A stretch of 64,000 nucleotides of DNA, taken from contig NC_015577.1 of assembly GCF_000214355.1 (NCBI RefSeq), positions 992,001 to 1,056,000 of the forward strand, written 5' to 3'. The DNA comes from Leadbettera azotonutricia ZAS-9. Lineage in GTDB: Bacteria > Spirochaetota > Spirochaetia > Treponematales > Breznakiellaceae. Positions 4,851 through 56,407 of this stretch are shown here, piece after piece; within the stretch, counting starts at the first letter, position 1, and every line of letters begins with the position of its first letter. The notes under the pieces are model-generated. The model did no database searches and was not told where the DNA came from. It saw nothing but the letters and a program-made list of their open reading frames with translations. The position numbers were made by a program, and so were the translations under genes.

Positions 4851-6631
4851 AGGATCATGAGGAGTGCAATATCTCCCTGACGCACTCCGGGTATGCGGGC
4901 GGCTTGGCCTACTGTAAGGGGCTTTACGGTTTTAAGTTTTTCACGGGCCTCTGAGGAAAGCCCCTGTATTGCAGCATAATCCAAAGCAGGATTGAGCTTG
5001 ATGGCTTCCATCTTGGAAAGCTTTGCGGCAGCGCGGTTTTCTTTTTCTATATATCCCGCATATTTGATATCCAGGGCTGCCCGCTGCAGCCATTCAGCAG
5101 GGTATGCTTTTAGTTCGCTTAATTCATTTTGTTTTTCCAAAAACCCCTCGTAGTTTTCGATTTTCCTCTGCCTCATAAGTTCCCTGATGGCTTCGAGACC
5201 CTCGGTTTTTTTTGCAAATCTTTCCCAGCGCCTTTCATCTGCCAGGCCCAGTTCCCTTGCCTTGGGCGTGAGCCGCGAGTCTGCTGTATCATGGCGCAGT
5301 ACGAGCCTGTGTTCCGCCCTGCTTGTAAACATGCGGTAAGGCTCTTTTGTTCCCAGGGTGGTAAGGTCATCCACCAGAACACCGATATAGGCTTCGGATC
5401 TGCCGAGGACGAGGGGAGGCTCGCCCCGTATCTTTTGCGCAGCGTTAATGCCCGCCATGATGCCCTGGGCAGCTGCCTCCTCATAACCTGAAGAACCGTT
5501 GGTCTGTCCGGCCGTAAAAAGACCCTTCACCCGTTTGGATTCCAGAGTGGGGTAGAGATCCAGGGGATCAAGGTAATCGTATTCTACCGCGTAAGCGGGT
5601 CTTACAATGAGAGATTCTTCAAGGCTCGGTATGGTACGGACAAAAGCTTCCTGCACGTCTTCGGGAAGGGAGCTTGAAAGGCCGTTGAGGTACATCTCGT
5701 TGGTGGAAAGCCCCTCAGGTTCAATAAAAATATGATGCCGGTCCCGCTCGGGAAAGCGCATTACCTTGTCCTCAATGGAGGGGCAGTACCGGGGCCCTAC
5801 GCCTTTTATCTTTCCGCCGTAGAGGGGCGAACGGTGTATGTTGGCGCGGATAATGTCGTGAGTTTTGGTACAGGTGTAGGTAATCCAGCAGGGAACTGAA
5901 GGCCTGCCAGAAAAATTATCTCCCCTTTGTGAAGGATCAATGTCAAAGGAGAAGGGCGAGGCTTCTTCGCCGTCTTGCCGTTCGGTCTTGGAATAGTCGA
6001 TGGAATTGCCCGCAATGCGCGCGGGGGTCCCGGTCTTGAGCCTGCCCATGGGAAAGCCCCTGCGCCTCAAGCTTGAACCCAGGCCAAGGGCAGCTCCTTC
6101 GCCGAGGCGGCCCTCGGGGGCGTCATGTTCGCCTATGAAGATCTTCCCCTCCATAAAGGTTCCGGCTGCAAGTATCACAGTGCGTGCGGAAATGCGGTTT
6201 CCCCTCTGTGTTATGACTCCCTGAACTTCTTCCTTGTCGCTGCCTTTATTTGTTGTAATAAGATCCGTTACCGTATCCATAAAGATGGTGAGCCCCTTTT
6301 GGGCTTCTACGGCTTTGCGGGCTTCGGCCTGATATAACTGCTTGTCAGCCTGGGCCCTGGGGGCCTGAACCGCAGGGCCCCTCGAACGGTTGAGTATGCG
6401 GAACTGGATCATGGTTTTGTCTATGAGGCGGGCCATCTCGCCTCCCAGGGCGTCTACCTCCCGCACGAGGTTGCCTTTGGAAAGACCGCCTATAGCCGGG
6501 TTGCAGGACATGGCGCCTATGCGGTCGGGATTCTGGGTGATAAGCAGGGCGGTAAAACCCATGCGGGTAACAGCCAGGGAGGCTTCTATACCTGCATGGC
6601 CGCCGCCGACTATGATACAGTCATAATCCAT
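4841..6631 (-). CDS. mnmG: tRNA uridine-5-carboxymethylaminomethyl modification enzyme MnmG
   Basis: FAD/NADH-dependent partner of MnmE; together they put (carboxymethyl)aminomethyl groups on U34 of certain tRNAs. The N-terminus carries the Rossmann dinucleotide motif ([13 protein letters not shown]), followed by family blocks [12 protein letters not shown] and [30 protein letters not shown] lies near the middle, and the C-terminal helical tRNA/MnmE-binding region is present. From the ATG at 6631 it is 596 residues. An upstream TTG (6652) is also in frame, but the ATG puts the FAD motif at the expected distance from the N-terminus. The ATG has no Shine-Dalgarno and sits 7 bases from a -10-like box (separate entry). 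mnmE lies on the same strand about 3.4 kb upstream, separated by genes on the other strand. Confidence 0.97.
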
Positions 6632-6638
6632 GATACTA

Positions 6639-6668
6639 ATAATGTACCCCAAGAGAGGAGGAAATCAA
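6639..6668 (-). promoter_or_regulatory. Candidate mnmG promoter giving a leaderless transcript
   Basis: Read on the minus strand: TTGATT (6668-6663), an 18-base spacer, CATTAT (6644-6639), then 7 bases to the mnmG ATG at 6631. A transcript starting about 7 bases after the -10 would begin at or next to the start codon. The -35 box overlaps the ribosome site of the divergent GH31 gene. Confidence 0.4.
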
Positions 6669-6669
6669 A

Positions 6670-8679
6670 GTGGCGTCTTTATTCTCAAAAGAAGGGAACC
6701 GTTTAATATACCGCTATGATGCGGAAAAAGTCTGGATAGAGGCATGGGGTGAAAACAGCCTCAGGGTACGGGCAAGCAAAATGGCCGAAATGCCCACATC
6801 AGACATGGATGATTGGGCCCTGCTCCCGCCCAAAGCTTCAAAATCCGAAATACGGCTGGGAGATGAAGAAGCGGTAATCCACAATGGAAAAATTGAATTG
6901 CGGATCTCCAGGGCCGGGAAGATTGTTGTTTTTAATCAGAAGGGTGAAAAGCTCCTCGAAGAATTTATACGCAACCGGCGTGATGTAAAATCGGAATATT
7001 GCAGCGCCCTGGATATTGAAAACCGTGAATTCAAACCCATCATCGGCGGCGATTACGAACTCACCCTGAGGCTGGAAGAAGTTTCCACAGAGGAGAGGAT
7101 CTACGGCATGGGCCAGTACCAGCAGCCCTGGCTCAACCTCAAAGGCTGTACCCTTGAATTGGCCCACCGCAATTCACAGGCCTCGGTTCCCTTCATGGTT
7201 TCGAGCCTGGGGTACGGTTTCCTCTGGAATAATCCCGCCGTGGGGCGGGTAACCTTCGGCAAGAACATGACCGTGTGGGAAGCGCGATCAACCAAAAAAC
7301 TCGACTACTGGATCACAGCCGGCGACAACCCGGCGGAGATTGAAGAGGCTTATGCTCAGGCGGCGGGTACTGTCCCCGAAATGCCCGATTATGCCCTGGG
7401 CTTCTGGCAATGCAAGCTCCGCTATCAGACCCAGGAAGAACTCCTCAGTGTTGCAAGGGAATACAAAAAACGGAATCTCCCCATATCAGTAATAGTAATA
7501 GACTTTTTTCACTGGCCCCTCCAGGGTGAATGGAAATTCGATCCCGTGTACTGGCCCGATCCTGACGCCATGATAGCTGAACTTAAAAAGATGAACATAG
7601 AACTCATGGTCTCCATCTGGCCCACCGTGGACAGGCGCAGCGAAAATTGGGAAGAGATGCTTGAGAAAGGTTACCTCATACGCACCGAGAGAGGTTACCG
7701 TATAGGTATGGATTTCCAGGGCAATACCATTCACTACGATGCAACCAATCCCGAAGCCCGGGAGTATGTCTGGAATAAAGTGAAAAAGAATTACTACGAA
7801 AAGGGAATACGCGTTTTCTGGCTTGACGAGGCCGAGCCCGAATATGCGGTTTACGATTTTGAGCAGTATCGCTACCATCTGGGCCCGAATCTTCAGATAG
7901 GCAACATCTACCCGGTGATGTACGCTAAAACTTTTTTTGACGGTATGGAAAAAGCGGGGCAGAAAAATATCATCAACCTTCTGCGCTGCGCCTGGGCCGG
8001 AAGCCAGAGATACGGCGCCCTGGTCTGGTCGGGAGACATACACTCAAGTTTTGCGAGCCTCAGGAACCAGCTTGCCGCTGGCCTCAATATGGGCATGGCA
8101 GGCATACCCTGGTGGACTACGGACATAGGGGGCTTCCACGGCGGCGAGATTGCAGATCCCCGTTTCCACGAATTGCTTATACGCTGGTTCCAGTGGGGCT
8201 GCTTTTGCCCGGTGATGCGTCTCCATGGCAACAGGGAACCTATAAAAGCCCAGTACGGAACTACAGGCGGCGCGACTTGCCTTTCGGGCGCCGACAACGA
8301 GGTGTGGTCTTATTCGGACGAGGTCTATGGGATCTGCAAAAAATATCTTTCCTTAAGGGAAAAACTCAAGCCCTATATTGCAGCTCTCATGAAGGCGGCC
8401 CACAAAAAAGGAACGCCCGTGATGCGTCCCCTCTTCTATGATTTCTCCGGGGATAAAAATGCGTGGGAGATAGAAGACGAGTATATGTTCGGTCCCAACT
8501 ACCTTGTGGCGCCCATACTTTACGAGGGTCTAAGAGATAGAAAGCTCTACCTTCCCTTCGGAACAAAATGGACCAACGCCTGGACAGGCGAAATTTTTGA
8601 AGGCGGAAAAGAGATAAGCGTCACCGCTCCCCTGGATCAGATACCTATTTTTACAAAAGATGGGAGCAGGCTGGAATAG
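6670..8679 (+). CDS. GH31 alpha-glycosidase (alpha-glucosidase/alpha-xylosidase type)
   Basis: A 669-residue glycoside hydrolase. The catalytic nucleophile is Asp386 in WLDEAEPE, and the acid/base is likely Asp456 in WSGDIHSSF; the downstream GIPWWTTDIGGF block is also typical of GH31. An N-terminal beta-sandwich precedes the (beta/alpha)8 barrel. There is no signal peptide, so it acts on imported oligosaccharides. The start is GTG, supported by GAGAGGAGG about 8 bases upstream. The stop at 8679 is directly followed by the MATE start at 8680, so the two are translationally coupled. WLDEAEPE is closer to alpha-xylosidase-type members than to WIDMNEP-type glucosidases, but substrate cannot be fixed from sequence alone. 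Confidence 0.93.
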   Translation: MASLFSKEGNRLIYRYDAEKVWIEAWGENSLRVRASKMAEMPTSDMDDWALLPPKASKSEIRLGDEEAVIHNGKIELRISRAGKIVVFNQKGEKLLEEFIRNRRDVKSEYCSALDIENREFKPIIGGDYELTLRLEEVSTEERIYGMGQYQQPWLNLKGCTLELAHRNSQASVPFMVSSLGYGFLWNNPAVGRVTFGKNMTVWEARSTKKLDYWITAGDNPAEIEEAYAQAAGTVPEMPDYALGFWQCKLRYQTQEELLSVAREYKKRNLPISVIVIDFFHWPLQGEWKFDPVYWPDPDAMIAELKKMNIELMVSIWPTVDRRSENWEEMLEKGYLIRTERGYRIGMDFQGNTIHYDATNPEAREYVWNKVKKNYYEKGIRVFWLDEAEPEYAVYDFEQYRYHLGPNLQIGNIYPVMYAKTFFDGMEKAGQKNIINLLRCAWAGSQRYGALVWSGDIHSSFASLRNQLAAGLNMGMAGIPWWTTDIGGFHGGEIADPRFHELLIRWFQWGCFCPVMRLHGNREPIKAQYGTTGGATCLSGADNEVWSYSDEVYGICKKYLSLREKLKPYIAALMKAAHKKGTPVMRPLFYDFSGDKNAWEIEDEYMFGPNYLVAPILYEGLRDRKLYLPFGTKWTNAWTGEIFEGGKEISVTAPLDQIPIFTKDGSRLE

Positions 8680-52300: not shown

Positions 52301-54748
52301 TTAAAGCCCCGGGCTGCCCCCGCTTTCCGATTCCATGAGTTCCGCCAGCTCTTTATCGCTGTCCGCAATGATGCTTGCGGCAAGGAAGCGGGCTGCCGCA
52401 GTTTCGGTAGTGTAAGGCCCCATGGGTACAGCCCCGGCGCGCCAGAGTTCCCTGGATGTGGTATAACCGGAGAAGTCTACGATGCCTTCCTGCTGGGAAG
52501 AACAGTAGAAGCGGCAGCCCCGCCTTTTGCCTATGGTAAATGCCCGCTTAAGCGAATAAGGGCCTTCGCGGAAACCCGCAGTTCCGGTGTCGTAAAGTTC
52601 GAGGAAGAAATTCTTTACCCCCTTGTCCATAAGGGAGACAAGGTAGTCCGAGCGGAGGCCGGGATAGATCTTGATCACGCACATGGAATTTACCGCATCC
52701 TCAAGAAGCTGAGAAAGCACGTACTGGTCGGCTTCCAGCGGGCCTGTGAGAAGGGAAGAGCCTTCGAAGAGAGGCCGCTCGGTATTCCAGTTCCTGAACT
52801 GGTCAGCCCCAAAACCTATGCGTTCAAATTTGAGGTTCAGGGCCGAGAGGACTTTTCCTCCGTGGACCACATATACCCCACGGGGCTTGTTCAATGCCAG
52901 GGCCACTGCCTTCTGCATGGTTCGTGCAGCTTCGGTGCTTTGTCCGGGAGGAGTGGAGGAGGCTGCCAGGATGATAGGCGCCCCTGCGTCGGCAAAGAGC
53001 CAGTAGAGCAGGGGGGCAGTGTAGGAGAGGGTGTCGGTACCGTGGGCTACCACGATGCCGTTGGCTGTCCCGGAGTTGAGTTTTTCCGCGATGGTTTCGA
53101 TGAGGGCAGCCCAGTCTGTTGGGACTATTTCTTCAGAGAGGAGGCGGCCGACCTGTATGGATTCAAACCGCACCTTTGAGGGATCAATCTGGTAGAGATT
53201 GTCCTGGTTGTTGGCAGTGAGAAGATCTTTGAGTATAGTTTCGTCGCCGCTTTCGACAGCCCCGTCTTCGCCTACGCTGCCGGAGATGGCTCCGCCCATG
53301 GAGAGGACATAGACAAGGGAGACTGAAAGTTTGTCCCTCAGCACTTCCTTTACCAGCATGGGCTCGGCAAGCCCCGAGGTTTCTTTCATGATGAGTCCTG
53401 TGAGGAACTGTATGGGGCCCGCATCCCCTTCGCGTATGCGCCGCACTTCCTGGGGGTTGGCTTCTATCACTTTAAGGACTATGGCTTCGATAGCTTCGCG
53501 GTCCCTGAGCTGTTCCCAGCCCTTTTCGCGTATGAGCCCTTCGGGGTCGCGGTCGTCTTCGAGCACAGCGGTGATGAGCTGTTTTGCAATGCTCCCGTGA
53601 ATGCGTCTTTCAAGGAGCATTTTCAGGATATGGGAAAAACGCCCGGGGCTGAGGGGGGAATCGTTTAAGGAGAGGCCCAGGCGGCGTATCTCTTTTATGC
53701 ACCAGGAAGAAAGCCATTGGGCTGCCTCGCGGGGAGGCGCGCCCAGGGCTGTGGTTTTTTCAAAATAGTCCGCCCTGTTCTTTTCGTCGCAGACAAATTC
53801 AGCCTGCAGCCTTGTAAGGCCGTATTCGTCCATAAGGCGGTCCCGCCTGGACTCCGGAAGCTCTACAGTGAAATTGTCCAGGGCTTCCAGAATCTCGGGC
53901 CCTGGCACAAAGGGCTTTATTCCCGGGGGTATTTCGAAACGGGGCTTTTCTTCGTTGGTGCGCACCTGAAATGGTTCGGTGCTGTTTTTGGCCTCGTTCC
54001 AGATCCGGCTTTCGCTGAGCACTGCTCCGCCGGAAGTGATGATCTCCTCCTGACGGGAGATTTCGGCATTGATGGCCTTGTACACAAAATTGAAGGAATT
54101 GAGATTCCTGAGCTTTACGAAATAGTCGGGCGCCTGGGGGTAGGGCATAATGGCAACATAGGCATTGCAGCGTATAAAATTTTCTGCGGGGAACTTCGCT
54201 GGAATTCCCGCGGCCTGGGGGAGTATGCCGAGGTATTGTATCCTTCTCCTCAAGTCTGATAGAAAAACCTCGGCTTCTTCGCCGATTTCGAAGTCCGCCG
54301 CAGTTTTTAAGCGCAGCGACGGGAGGCCCGCAGTGGAATAATCCCAAAAAGTGCCTTTGGCTGTGTGCATGAGGCGGCCTGCGTCCTCTTCAATCCTGAT
54401 TTCGCTGATTCCTATCTTCTTCCTGCAGAGGTGGAACGTAAGATCTATGGAAGCATTTTCCCCCAGTTTGACCGAATAGCGGGAAAGGGCGTGGCCCTCG
54501 GGGGCAGTAGGGGTAGTGAGATTCCGCTCATAGGCGGCTTCTCCGATGATGGCGCCCCCCAGGCCCCGGGTGAGGAGGTAGGCTTTCCGTGCTGCCAGAG
54601 GGTTCAGGATAGGCGCCGCCCCCGGTTCTTCCCTGCAGATGGGGCAGGACGAGGCAGGGCCGCAGGGGCAAAAAGCTTTTACAGCCGGGATATTAGGTAT
54701 TTCGCCCAGGAGGATCCGCACTTCCAGGGCTATATGGGGCTTATACAA
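52301..54748 (-). CDS. GatB-like/asparaginase fusion protein with altered active-site residues
   Basis: 815 residues in one continuous frame. Residues 1-474 match the tRNA-dependent amidotransferase subunit GatB: zinc cysteines C27, C29, C35, C38, EEDAG at 120-124, NLNSF at 215-219, the helical region, and a YqeY-type tail (FLTGLIMKETSGLAEPMLVKE). Residues 475-800 match a type I asparaginase: HGTDT at 569-573 and the C-terminal SSQQEGIVDFSGY. Key changes: GLEVH reads ALEVR (His to Arg at 10), RCDANVSI reads RCNAYVAI, and the asparaginase TGGTIA reads MGGAIS, so the nucleophile Thr is Ala487. Archaeal GatD/GatE pair the same domain types as two proteins. No gatA or gatC is adjacent. Confidence 0.85.
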   Translation of the reverse strand: MYKPHIALEVRILLGEIPNIPAVKAFCPCGPASSCPICREEPGAAPILNPLAARKAYLLTRGLGGAIIGEAAYERNLTTPTAPEGHALSRYSVKLGENASIDLTFHLCRKKIGISEIRIEEDAGRLMHTAKGTFWDYSTAGLPSLRLKTAADFEIGEEAEVFLSDLRRRIQYLGILPQAAGIPAKFPAENFIRCNAYVAIMPYPQAPDYFVKLRNLNSFNFVYKAINAEISRQEEIITSGGAVLSESRIWNEAKNSTEPFQVRTNEEKPRFEIPPGIKPFVPGPEILEALDNFTVELPESRRDRLMDEYGLTRLQAEFVCDEKNRADYFEKTTALGAPPREAAQWLSSWCIKEIRRLGLSLNDSPLSPGRFSHILKMLLERRIHGSIAKQLITAVLEDDRDPEGLIREKGWEQLRDREAIEAIVLKVIEANPQEVRRIREGDAGPIQFLTGLIMKETSGLAEPMLVKEVLRDKLSVSLVYVLSMGGAISGSVGEDGAVESGDETILKDLLTANNQDNLYQIDPSKVRFESIQVGRLLSEEIVPTDWAALIETIAEKLNSGTANGIVVAHGTDTLSYTAPLLYWLFADAGAPIILAASSTPPGQSTEAARTMQKAVALALNKPRGVYVVHGGKVLSALNLKFERIGFGADQFRNWNTERPLFEGSSLLTGPLEADQYVLSQLLEDAVNSMCVIKIYPGLRSDYLVSLMDKGVKNFFLELYDTGTAGFREGPYSLKRAFTIGKRRGCRFYCSSQQEGIVDFSGYTTSRELWRAGAVPMGPYTTETAAARFLAASIIADSDKELAELMESESGGSPGL

Positions 54749-54982
54749 GGAGCACCTCTAACTTTTTCATCGAATTTTTCTTTTCCTTATAAAAAAATAA
54801 TGGCAAATTTGGCATTATGAATGTATAATAAATTAGACCTTGAGGCAATTCCCGCATCAAGGGGGTAAATTTGAAAGAACTTTGACACCTTTAGGGGCAT
54901 TATTTGTTTGACTTTTTATAGGCGATAGAGTAGGCTAGAAGGTATTTGCAGTGACTATACAACGAAGTTTTGAGGAGCAGGT

Positions 54983-56407
54983 GTGACCAAACGCGATTTC
55001 CCCAAGATCCATTTTTACGATCAGGATTTTGTCGACATATATGATAAAACCTGGGCGTGGATTCAGGATTACTGGAATACAGGCAGCGAGAAGAGCGTCA
55101 TCGAGGGGAAATTTTTTTCGTACCCTGGCAGTCCGGTGATTCAGCAGGTGGACGCTATTTTTTCGTCTTTCTTTCTGGTTTACTCCAACAGGATATACCA
55201 GGCCAGCCCCTCGCTGGACGTTTTTTACCAGCGCCAGGAGCCTAACGGGGCCATACGCTCGGCATACAACATAGAAACAGGCCTCCCTGTTATTGACGAC
55301 GACAACCCCGAAGGCCTGGGCCTCCCCCTTTTCGCCTGGGCCGAATTCAACCTCTACCATAAATCCGCCAACAAAAAGCGGGTCAAGGATGTGCTTCCCA
55401 TACTCCAGAACTATGTGAAGTGGATAGATTCGGTTTTTAAGCAGCCCAACGGCCTCTACCGGGTTCCCCTGGCTGCAACGGGCATGCCCAACTCGCCCCG
55501 TGAAAAGGCAGCCTATCCCCTGGACTTCAACACCATGATGGCGGTGAACATACTCTATATGTCCGCCCTCGCCGATATCCTAAACGACAAGGAATCGAGC
55601 TTTCAATACAAGAAGCAATACTTTTCCCTTAAAACCCGCATCAACAGCCTCATGTGGGACCCCGAGGACGGTTTCTACTATGACATCGACAAGAACGAGA
55701 AGCGCCTTTCTGTAAAAACCATCGCGGGCTACTGGCCCCTTTTGGCCGAGATCCCCAACGACGACAAGGCCGAAAAGATCATAGCCAAGCTCCAGGACCC
55801 CAAGTTTTTCGGCGCCTCCCATCCTTTCCCCACAGTTTCCCTCTCGGAAAAAACCTTCGACGATTCGGGCCACGGTTACCGGGGCTCGGTGTTTCCTCAT
55901 CTTACCTTCATGGTGATAAAGGGCCTTGAGCGCTACCAGCGCTGGGATCTGGCGCGGGAATGCGCCATACGCCACCTCTATTTTGTGCTTGACTCCATGA
56001 GTCCCGACGGGAACCATCACAAGGGCAAACTCTGGGAAGCGTACCTTCCTTCAAAAGAGGGTCCTGCCCAATGGCCGGGAAAACCCGAGTTTCCCCGGCC
56101 CCAGTACCTTACATACGCCGCCCTTTCGACCATCTGTCTTACTATAGAAAACATCGTTGGTCTTTTCATCTCCCTTCCTCGCAAAACTGTAGACTGGATT
56201 ATTCCCAACTTGGAGATCATGGGGGTCGAGAACCTCTCGCTCAAGAAAAACATGATCACCATTCTTTCCAACAAGTCGGGCAGGGGCTGGGAAATCCACA
56301 TGGAAAGCGAAAAGCTCTATTACTTTACCATTAACATTTTGGGGAAGAAGAAAAAAACCCTGCCTATACCCTCGGGGAAGTGTTCGATGTTGATTGATAA
56401 GCTGTAG
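54983..56407 (+). CDS. GH63/trehalase-like glycoside hydrolase
   Basis: 474 residues from GTG 54983, preceded by TGAGGAGCAGG. An (alpha/alpha)6-barrel pattern with the acidic blocks GLPLFAWAEFNLYH, LDFNTMMAVN, MWDPEDGFYYDID, and GYRGSVFPHLTFMVIKGLERY matches GH63 and trehalase-type enzymes, including mannosylglycerate hydrolases. There is no signal peptide. The catalytic acids cannot be assigned with confidence by eye. A possible promoter TTGACT (54908-54913) with a weak -10 lies upstream. Confidence 0.78.
   Translation: MTKRDFPKIHFYDQDFVDIYDKTWAWIQDYWNTGSEKSVIEGKFFSYPGSPVIQQVDAIFSSFFLVYSNRIYQASPSLDVFYQRQEPNGAIRSAYNIETGLPVIDDDNPEGLGLPLFAWAEFNLYHKSANKKRVKDVLPILQNYVKWIDSVFKQPNGLYRVPLAATGMPNSPREKAAYPLDFNTMMAVNILYMSALADILNDKESSFQYKKQYFSLKTRINSLMWDPEDGFYYDIDKNEKRLSVKTIAGYWPLLAEIPNDDKAEKIIAKLQDPKFFGASHPFPTVSLSEKTFDDSGHGYRGSVFPHLTFMVIKGLERYQRWDLARECAIRHLYFVLDSMSPDGNHHKGKLWEAYLPSKEGPAQWPGKPEFPRPQYLTYAALSTICLTIENIVGLFISLPRKTVDWIIPNLEIMGVENLSLKKNMITILSNKSGRGWEIHMESEKLYYFTINILGKKKKTLPIPSGKCSMLIDKL

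What the first reader, a model, noticed from the sequence alone, without database searches (positions are those of the whole stretch)
52301..54748. One polypeptide joins GatB to an asparaginase domain, with changed active-site residues in both halves
Seen: a single 815-codon frame with a GatB-like half (zinc CxC...CxxC, EEDAG, NLNSF, YqeY-type tail) and an asparaginase half (HGTDT, C-terminal block). The metal His of GLEVH is Arg, RCDANVSI is RCNAYVAI, and the asparaginase nucleophile Thr of TGGTIA is Ala. Known: archaea use GatD (asparaginase-like) plus GatE (GatB-like) to make Gln-tRNA, while bacteria use GatCAB. Inference: a repurposed or regulatory protein, or an asparagine/tRNA-sensing device, rather than a normal amidotransferase.
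Basis: partly seen in the sequence, partly recalled or inferred. Interest (0 to 1): 0.8.

Follow-up and report, generated by a model that had tools for sequence, protein, structure and literature searches.

The report
Dead tRNA-amidase/asparaginase fusion in Treponema
A termite-gut-type Treponema keeps, at the place where its relatives have the gene cluster that makes asparagine on tRNA, one protein made of two enzymes that have both lost their catalytic residues, which suggests that an asparagine-making enzyme was turned into an asparagine-responsive regulator.

Summary
It is not an assembly join: 27 relatives in two Treponema families carry the same fusion, and all 27 loci with enough flank place it divergently beside the same glycosidase gene. 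Other Spirochaetia have gatC–gatA–gatB::asparaginase–aspS (non-discriminating) beside that glycosidase gene. There the fusion is usually the only, normal-looking GatB, so the window gene is the stripped-down descendant of an operon that makes asparagine on tRNA(Asn). In that ancestral form the asparaginase-like half already lacks its nucleophile (Thr→Ala, 25/25) but keeps other pocket residues. In the Treponema form the GatB half has also lost catalytic residues (His→Arg, Glu→Arg, Asp→Asn, Glu→Lys in 26–27 of 27). Constraint has moved to the asparaginase-like half; low dN/dS shows it is no pseudogene. The genome has a separate gatCAB, a non-discriminating AspRS, GlnRS and AsnRS, and no AsnA or AsnB. 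Best reading: a double pseudoenzyme whose asparaginase-like half binds Asn/Asp without hydrolysis and acts as a regulator. Death of both active sites is well supported; ligand and target are inferred. It is not GatDE-type. I found no description of it.

The parts
52301..54748 (-). GatB-like::asparaginase-like fusion gene, 815 aa, TTG start (stop codon included)
   Evidence: homologues start at the same place
53324..54748 (-). GatB-like half, residues 1-475 (GatB_N residues 33-281, GatB_Yqey 327-474)
   Evidence: model m898e6d79c502 matches S. aureus GatB 2g5i_B, Z 35.9
54635..54670 (-). zinc-knuckle cysteines C27, C29, C35, C38; kept in most family f1 copies, often lost in family f2
54716..54718 (-). 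R11, in place of the metal-ligand His (GLEVH); Arg in 27/27 type B, His in 49/49 other GatBs
   Evidence: metal ligand per PMC4027206
54311..54313 (-). R146, in place of the metal-ligand Glu of PLLEIVT; Arg in 26/27 type B
   Evidence: PMC4027206
54164..54166 (-). N195, in place of the Asp of RCDANVS; Asn in 27/27 type B
54113..54115 (-). K212, in place of the Glu of VEIKN; Lys in 27/27 type B
52304..53323 (-). asparaginase-like half, residues 476-815 (Pfam Asparaginase 479-638; Asparaginase_C 691-804, below its cut-off)
   Evidence: model matches type I asparaginases, Z 28-30
53288..53290 (-). A487, in place of the nucleophilic Thr12 (GGT to GGA); Ala in 25/25 type A
53030..53044 (-). HGTDT (569-573), with the kept Thr89 and Asp90 equivalents T571 and D572
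52829..52831 (-). K640, the kept Lys162 equivalent (NLK)
54983..56407 (+). divergent neighbour, MGH1-like/trehalase-clan glycosidase; marks the ancestral gatCAB-aspS locus
54749..54982 (.). shared divergent intergenic region (234 bp); no Rfam match

Best explanation
The gene descends from the gatB of a spirochaetal operon gatC-gatA-gatB::asparaginase-like-aspS (non-discriminating AspRS), which makes Asn-tRNA(Asn), and through it asparagine. There the asparaginase-like domain on GatB had already lost its nucleophile, so it most likely binds Asn or Asp without hydrolysing it and reports asparagine supply to the amidotransferase. In Treponema, gatC, gatA and aspS are gone from this locus and another GatB does the chemistry. 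The remaining fusion then lost the GatB metal site (acidic and His residues became Arg, Asn and Lys), leaving a double pseudoenzyme under selection. Its most likely action is as an Asn/Asp-binding regulator whose GatB-derived body binds tRNA or the GatCAB/AspRS machinery. Shown by sequence: descent, position, loss of both sets of catalytic residues, continued purifying selection and the shift of constraint to the asparaginase-like half. Inferred: the ligand, the partner and the direction of regulation.
For: Same divergent glycosidase neighbour in all 27 type B loci with enough flank, and in 12/12 fetched type A loci beside gatA-fusion-aspS (gatC). In most type A genomes the fusion is the only GatB although GlnRS and AsnRS are present. 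The downstream synthetase passes TIGR00458, aspartate--tRNA(Asn) ligase. Thr12 to Ala in 25/25 type A and 23 of 26 type B, with Ser58, Asp90 and (mostly) Lys162 equivalents kept. EcAII T12V is inactive yet binds Asn as wild type does (PMC7567106); human ASPG T19A is inactive (PMC5443537 abstract); Asn-bound T13A and T19A crystals are among the structural matches. H11R, D195N, E212K in 27/27 and E146R in 26/27, while ATP-site E9, T149, N215, S218 stay (yeast GatB residues from PMC4027206). Mean identity is GatB 0.71/Asn 0.56 in type A but 0.55/0.64 in type B; median dN/dS in type B about 0.18 and 0.12. Own genome: gatCAB, ND-AspRS, no AsnA or AsnB over cut-off, no other PF00710 protein.
Against: No binding or regulation was measured. 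Two family f2 copies carry Thr again at the nucleophile position and three have lost Thr89. Family f2 Treponema with type B have AsnA, lack GlnRS and show no ND-AspRS-level match, so the tie to tRNA-made Asn does not hold there. Many Treponema lack type B, and it is broken in one (L060), so it is dispensable. Some type A relatives run a GatB without the domain.
Confidence: 0.5

Rival explanations
1. A decaying relic of the old operon, kept by chance.
For: gatC, gatA and aspS are gone from the locus; one family f2 copy is broken into fragments; absent from many Treponema.
Against: dN/dS 0.06-0.23 across 22 type B pairs, open frames of about 800 codons in two families, identical catalytic-site replacements in 26-27 of 27 copies.
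Confidence: 0.1
2. Still an asparaginase or glutaminase, using Thr571 (HGTDT) or water as nucleophile.
For: Thr89, Asp90 and Lys162 equivalents are kept in family f1.
Against: Both the nucleophile Thr12 and its proton relay Tyr25 are replaced; T12V of EcAII and T19A of human ASPG are inactive.
Confidence: 0.12
3. A structural partner of GatA/GatC that modulates the working GatCAB by forming alternative complexes; the asparaginase-like half is only a scaffold.
For: GatB fold kept with Z near 36 to GatCAB GatB chains; 18 of 69 columns invariant in other GatBs are kept.
Against: In type B the GatB half, not the asparaginase half, is the less constrained; interfaces were not tested.
Confidence: 0.18
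4. A one-chain GatDE-like amidotransferase in which the asparaginase half feeds ammonia to GatB.
For: Same two domain families as GatD and GatE in one chain.
Against: Neither site has its catalytic residues; type A operons carry gatA for the ammonia; scores to gatD_arch and gatE_arch lie far below cut-off.
Confidence: 0.02

Closest known systems
Bacterial GatB (TIGR00133), subunit of GatCAB
   Same: fold, zinc motif, ATP-site residues, YqeY tail; shared ancestry
   Different: score below cut-off, metal-site residues replaced, no gatA/gatC at the locus, extra C-terminal domain
Type I L-asparaginase (TIGR00519, Pfam PF00710)
   Same: fold; Ser58, Thr89, Asp90 and Lys162 equivalents
   Different: nucleophile Thr12 and Tyr25 replaced, score below cut-off, fused to GatB
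Archaeal GatDE
   Same: also pairs a GatB-type with an asparaginase-type protein
   Different: GatDE is two chains with an active GatD; here one chain of bacterial GatB descent with both sites dead
ND-AspRS + GatCAB route to asparagine (Deinococcus, Thermus, Bdellovibrio; PMC4206432)
   Same: AsnRS and GlnRS present, ND-AspRS and GatCAB, no AsnA/AsnB in the window genome
   Different: GatB carries a dead asparaginase domain in relatives, and a dead GatB fusion persists in Treponema
HisZ, the catalytically dead HisRS paralogue that regulates HisG (own knowledge)
   Same: a translation enzyme turned into a regulatory pseudoenzyme of amino-acid synthesis
   Different: unrelated fold; here the regulatory role is inferred only

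Membership tests
GatB (TIGR00133) | score over curated cut-off (314.8 bits) | tested here: not met
   234.5 bits; 236.4 bits in the genome search
GatB (TIGR00133) | metal-site His and Glu, and conserved Asp/Glu of RCD and VEIKN | tested here: not met
   R11, R146, N195, K212
GatB (TIGR00133) | ATP-site Glu, Thr, Asn, Ser | tested here: met
   E9, T149, N215, S218
GatB (TIGR00133) | fold | tested here: met
   Z 35.9, 389 aligned, rmsd 3.6, to 2g5i_B
Type I asparaginase (TIGR00519) | score over curated cut-off (260.5 bits) | tested here: not met
   95.6 bits
Type I asparaginase (TIGR00519) | nucleophilic Thr and its Tyr | tested here: not met
   A487 and V498
Type I asparaginase (TIGR00519) | Thr-Asp-Lys of the pocket | tested here: met
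   T571, D572, K640
Type I asparaginase (TIGR00519) | hydrolysis of Asn | not testable with these tools
   needs an assay
GatDE | GatD and GatE model scores over cut-off | tested here: not met
   88.5 against 324 and 44.4 against 319.55 bits
tRNA-dependent Asn pathway in this genome | ND-AspRS and gatCAB present, AsnA and AsnB absent | tested here: met
tRNA-dependent Asn pathway in this genome | tRNA(Asn) with U1-A72 | not tested
   tRNA genes were not fetched

The most novel reading that the evidence does not exclude
A naturally dead asparaginase domain is the asparagine feedback sensor of tRNA-dependent asparagine synthesis in Spirochaetia, and Treponema turned it into a free-standing double pseudoenzyme that reads both asparagine and tRNA or the transamidosome.
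Probability: 0.33. Interest if true: 0.8.

Novelty: new variant of a known kind. Interest (0 to 1): 0.62.

Why it matters
I know of no feedback sensor for the tRNA-bound route to asparagine. A GatB with a built-in substrate-trap version of asparaginase, and its doubly dead descendant, make this directly testable and give a clear case of an enzyme becoming a regulator in steps that can be read from gene order.

Tried and rejected
Assembly join: rejected, same fusion in many independent assemblies. GatDE-like enzyme: rejected on residues, operon and model scores. Link to the neighbouring glycosidase as a functional partner: not claimed, since that gene is in 376 of 395 Spirochaetia with or without the fusion; it serves as a landmark. 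Link to absence of AsnA: does not hold in family f2. Riboswitch or T-box upstream: no Rfam match. Literature for this fusion: none found in the held library. Fusion outside class Spirochaetia: none seen in a phylum sample of 120 genomes. gatC was missed by the genome search in family f1 but is weakly recognised upstream of gatA in this genome. The GatB tree is midpoint-rooted and type B is on a long branch, so descent rests mainly on gene order.

Full report
What is there. The frame reported at 52301-54748 is on the minus strand: 815 codons from a TTG. Pfam places GatB_N, GatB_Yqey and Asparaginase in one chain, all above their cut-offs; Asparaginase_C is below its cut-off. Two more catalytic changes were missed: Glu of PLLEIVT to Arg (R146) and Glu of VEIKN to Lys (K212). 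An AlphaFold2 model has mean pLDDT 85; its halves match S. aureus GatB (Z 35.9) and type I asparaginases (Z 28-30). The genome is one contig of 3,855,671 bases; from memory that is the size of Treponema azotonutricium ZAS-9, which I did not verify.

It is a family, in two forms. Similar fusions lie in 13 other loci of a genome collection and in about 60 of 395 genomes of the class. In a phylum sample of 120 genomes, relatives outside the class match only the GatB part. Type A has a normal-looking GatB half and, in most genomes, is the only GatB. Type B, which includes the window gene, occurs in two Treponema families (f1, f2) beside a separate GatB.

Gene order ties them together. Type A genes lie in an operon gatC-gatA-gatB::asparaginase-like-aspS. 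The synthetase passes the model for non-discriminating aspartate--tRNA(Asn) ligase (TIGR00458). AsnRS is found in nearly all these genomes and GlnRS in most, so this operon most likely serves asparagine synthesis on tRNA(Asn), as described for Deinococcus, Thermus and Bdellovibrio (PMC4206432). The operon is transcribed away from a conserved glycosidase gene in 12 of 12 fetched type A loci, and the same glycosidase gene is directly divergent from the fusion in all 27 type B loci with enough flank, the window included. In one type A genome the ppx and ppk genes that flank the window locus also lie close by. So the window gene sits where the operon was, with gatC, gatA and aspS gone. The working gatC-gatA-gatB of this genome is elsewhere (about C1:2399285-2402640) and its aspS stands apart.

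Two deaths, in order. All 25 type A proteins carry Ala at the asparaginase nucleophile (Thr12 of E. coli AnsB), and the Tyr25 position is Ile or Val, while Ser58, Thr89, Asp90 and mostly Lys162 equivalents stay. EcAII T12V is inactive yet binds Asn as the wild type does (PMC7567106); human ASPG T19A is inactive (PMC5443537); Asn-bound T13A and T19A asparaginase crystals are among the structural neighbours. The domain therefore looks like a natural substrate-trap mutant. In type B the GatB half then changed: His to Arg, Asp to Asn and Glu to Lys in 27 of 27, Glu to Arg in 26 of 27, while ATP-site residues stay (roles of His, Glu and ATP-site residues from yeast GatB, PMC4027206). Of 69 columns invariant in 49 other GatBs, 25 are lost in type B, all in the catalytic cradle.

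Still under selection. Type B pairs have median dN/dS of 0.18 (GatB half) and 0.12 (asparaginase half). Mean identity within type A is 0.71 for the GatB half and 0.56 for the other; in type B it is 0.55 and 0.64. The weight of constraint has moved to the asparaginase-like half.

How it most likely works. The genome has no AsnA or AsnB over cut-off and no other PF00710 protein, so tRNA-made asparagine looks like its only own supply. I think that the asparaginase-like domain binds Asn or Asp and reports it: first in cis to GatB (type A), later as a separate protein (type B). My odds: both active sites dead 0.9; positional descendant of the operon 0.9; Asn/Asp-binding regulator about 0.45; acting on tRNA or GatCAB about 0.3.

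Limits. No ligand or partner was shown. Family f2 copies drift more (nucleophile Thr present again in two, Thr89 lost in three), have AsnA and show no ND-AspRS-level match, so the function may differ there. The protein is dispensable: many Treponema lack it and it is broken in one (L060). The tree is midpoint-rooted with a long type B branch.

Novelty. Searches of the held literature found no description. Parts and pathway are known; the fusion with a dead asparaginase and its doubly dead descendant are a new variant.

Noticed in passing
L060 (G100), 6091-8461: The type B fusion is broken into three frames in this Treponema: a pseudogene beside the conserved glycosidase gene.
   Followed up: partly
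L064/L065 (G134), L082/L083 (G116): Genomes with two full gatCAB sets, one with the asparaginase-fused GatB plus ND-AspRS and one plain, although GlnRS is present.
   Followed up: partly
G430 C109:16337-21512: A Spirochaetota genome outside the class has asparaginase-like and GatB-like frames close together, perhaps an archaeal-type GatD/GatE pair or contamination.
   Followed up: no
L070 (G092) against L063 (G028), same genus: GatB without the asparaginase-like domain, followed directly by aspS: the domain seems cleanly lost in one species.
   Followed up: partly
window 54983-56407: MGH1-like/trehalase-clan glycosidase found in 376 of 395 Spirochaetia genomes sampled; its function is not obvious.
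   Followed up: partly
window 54741-54770: A 9-codon frame (MKKLEVLLV) just upstream overlaps the TTG start of the fusion gene in another frame.
   Followed up: no
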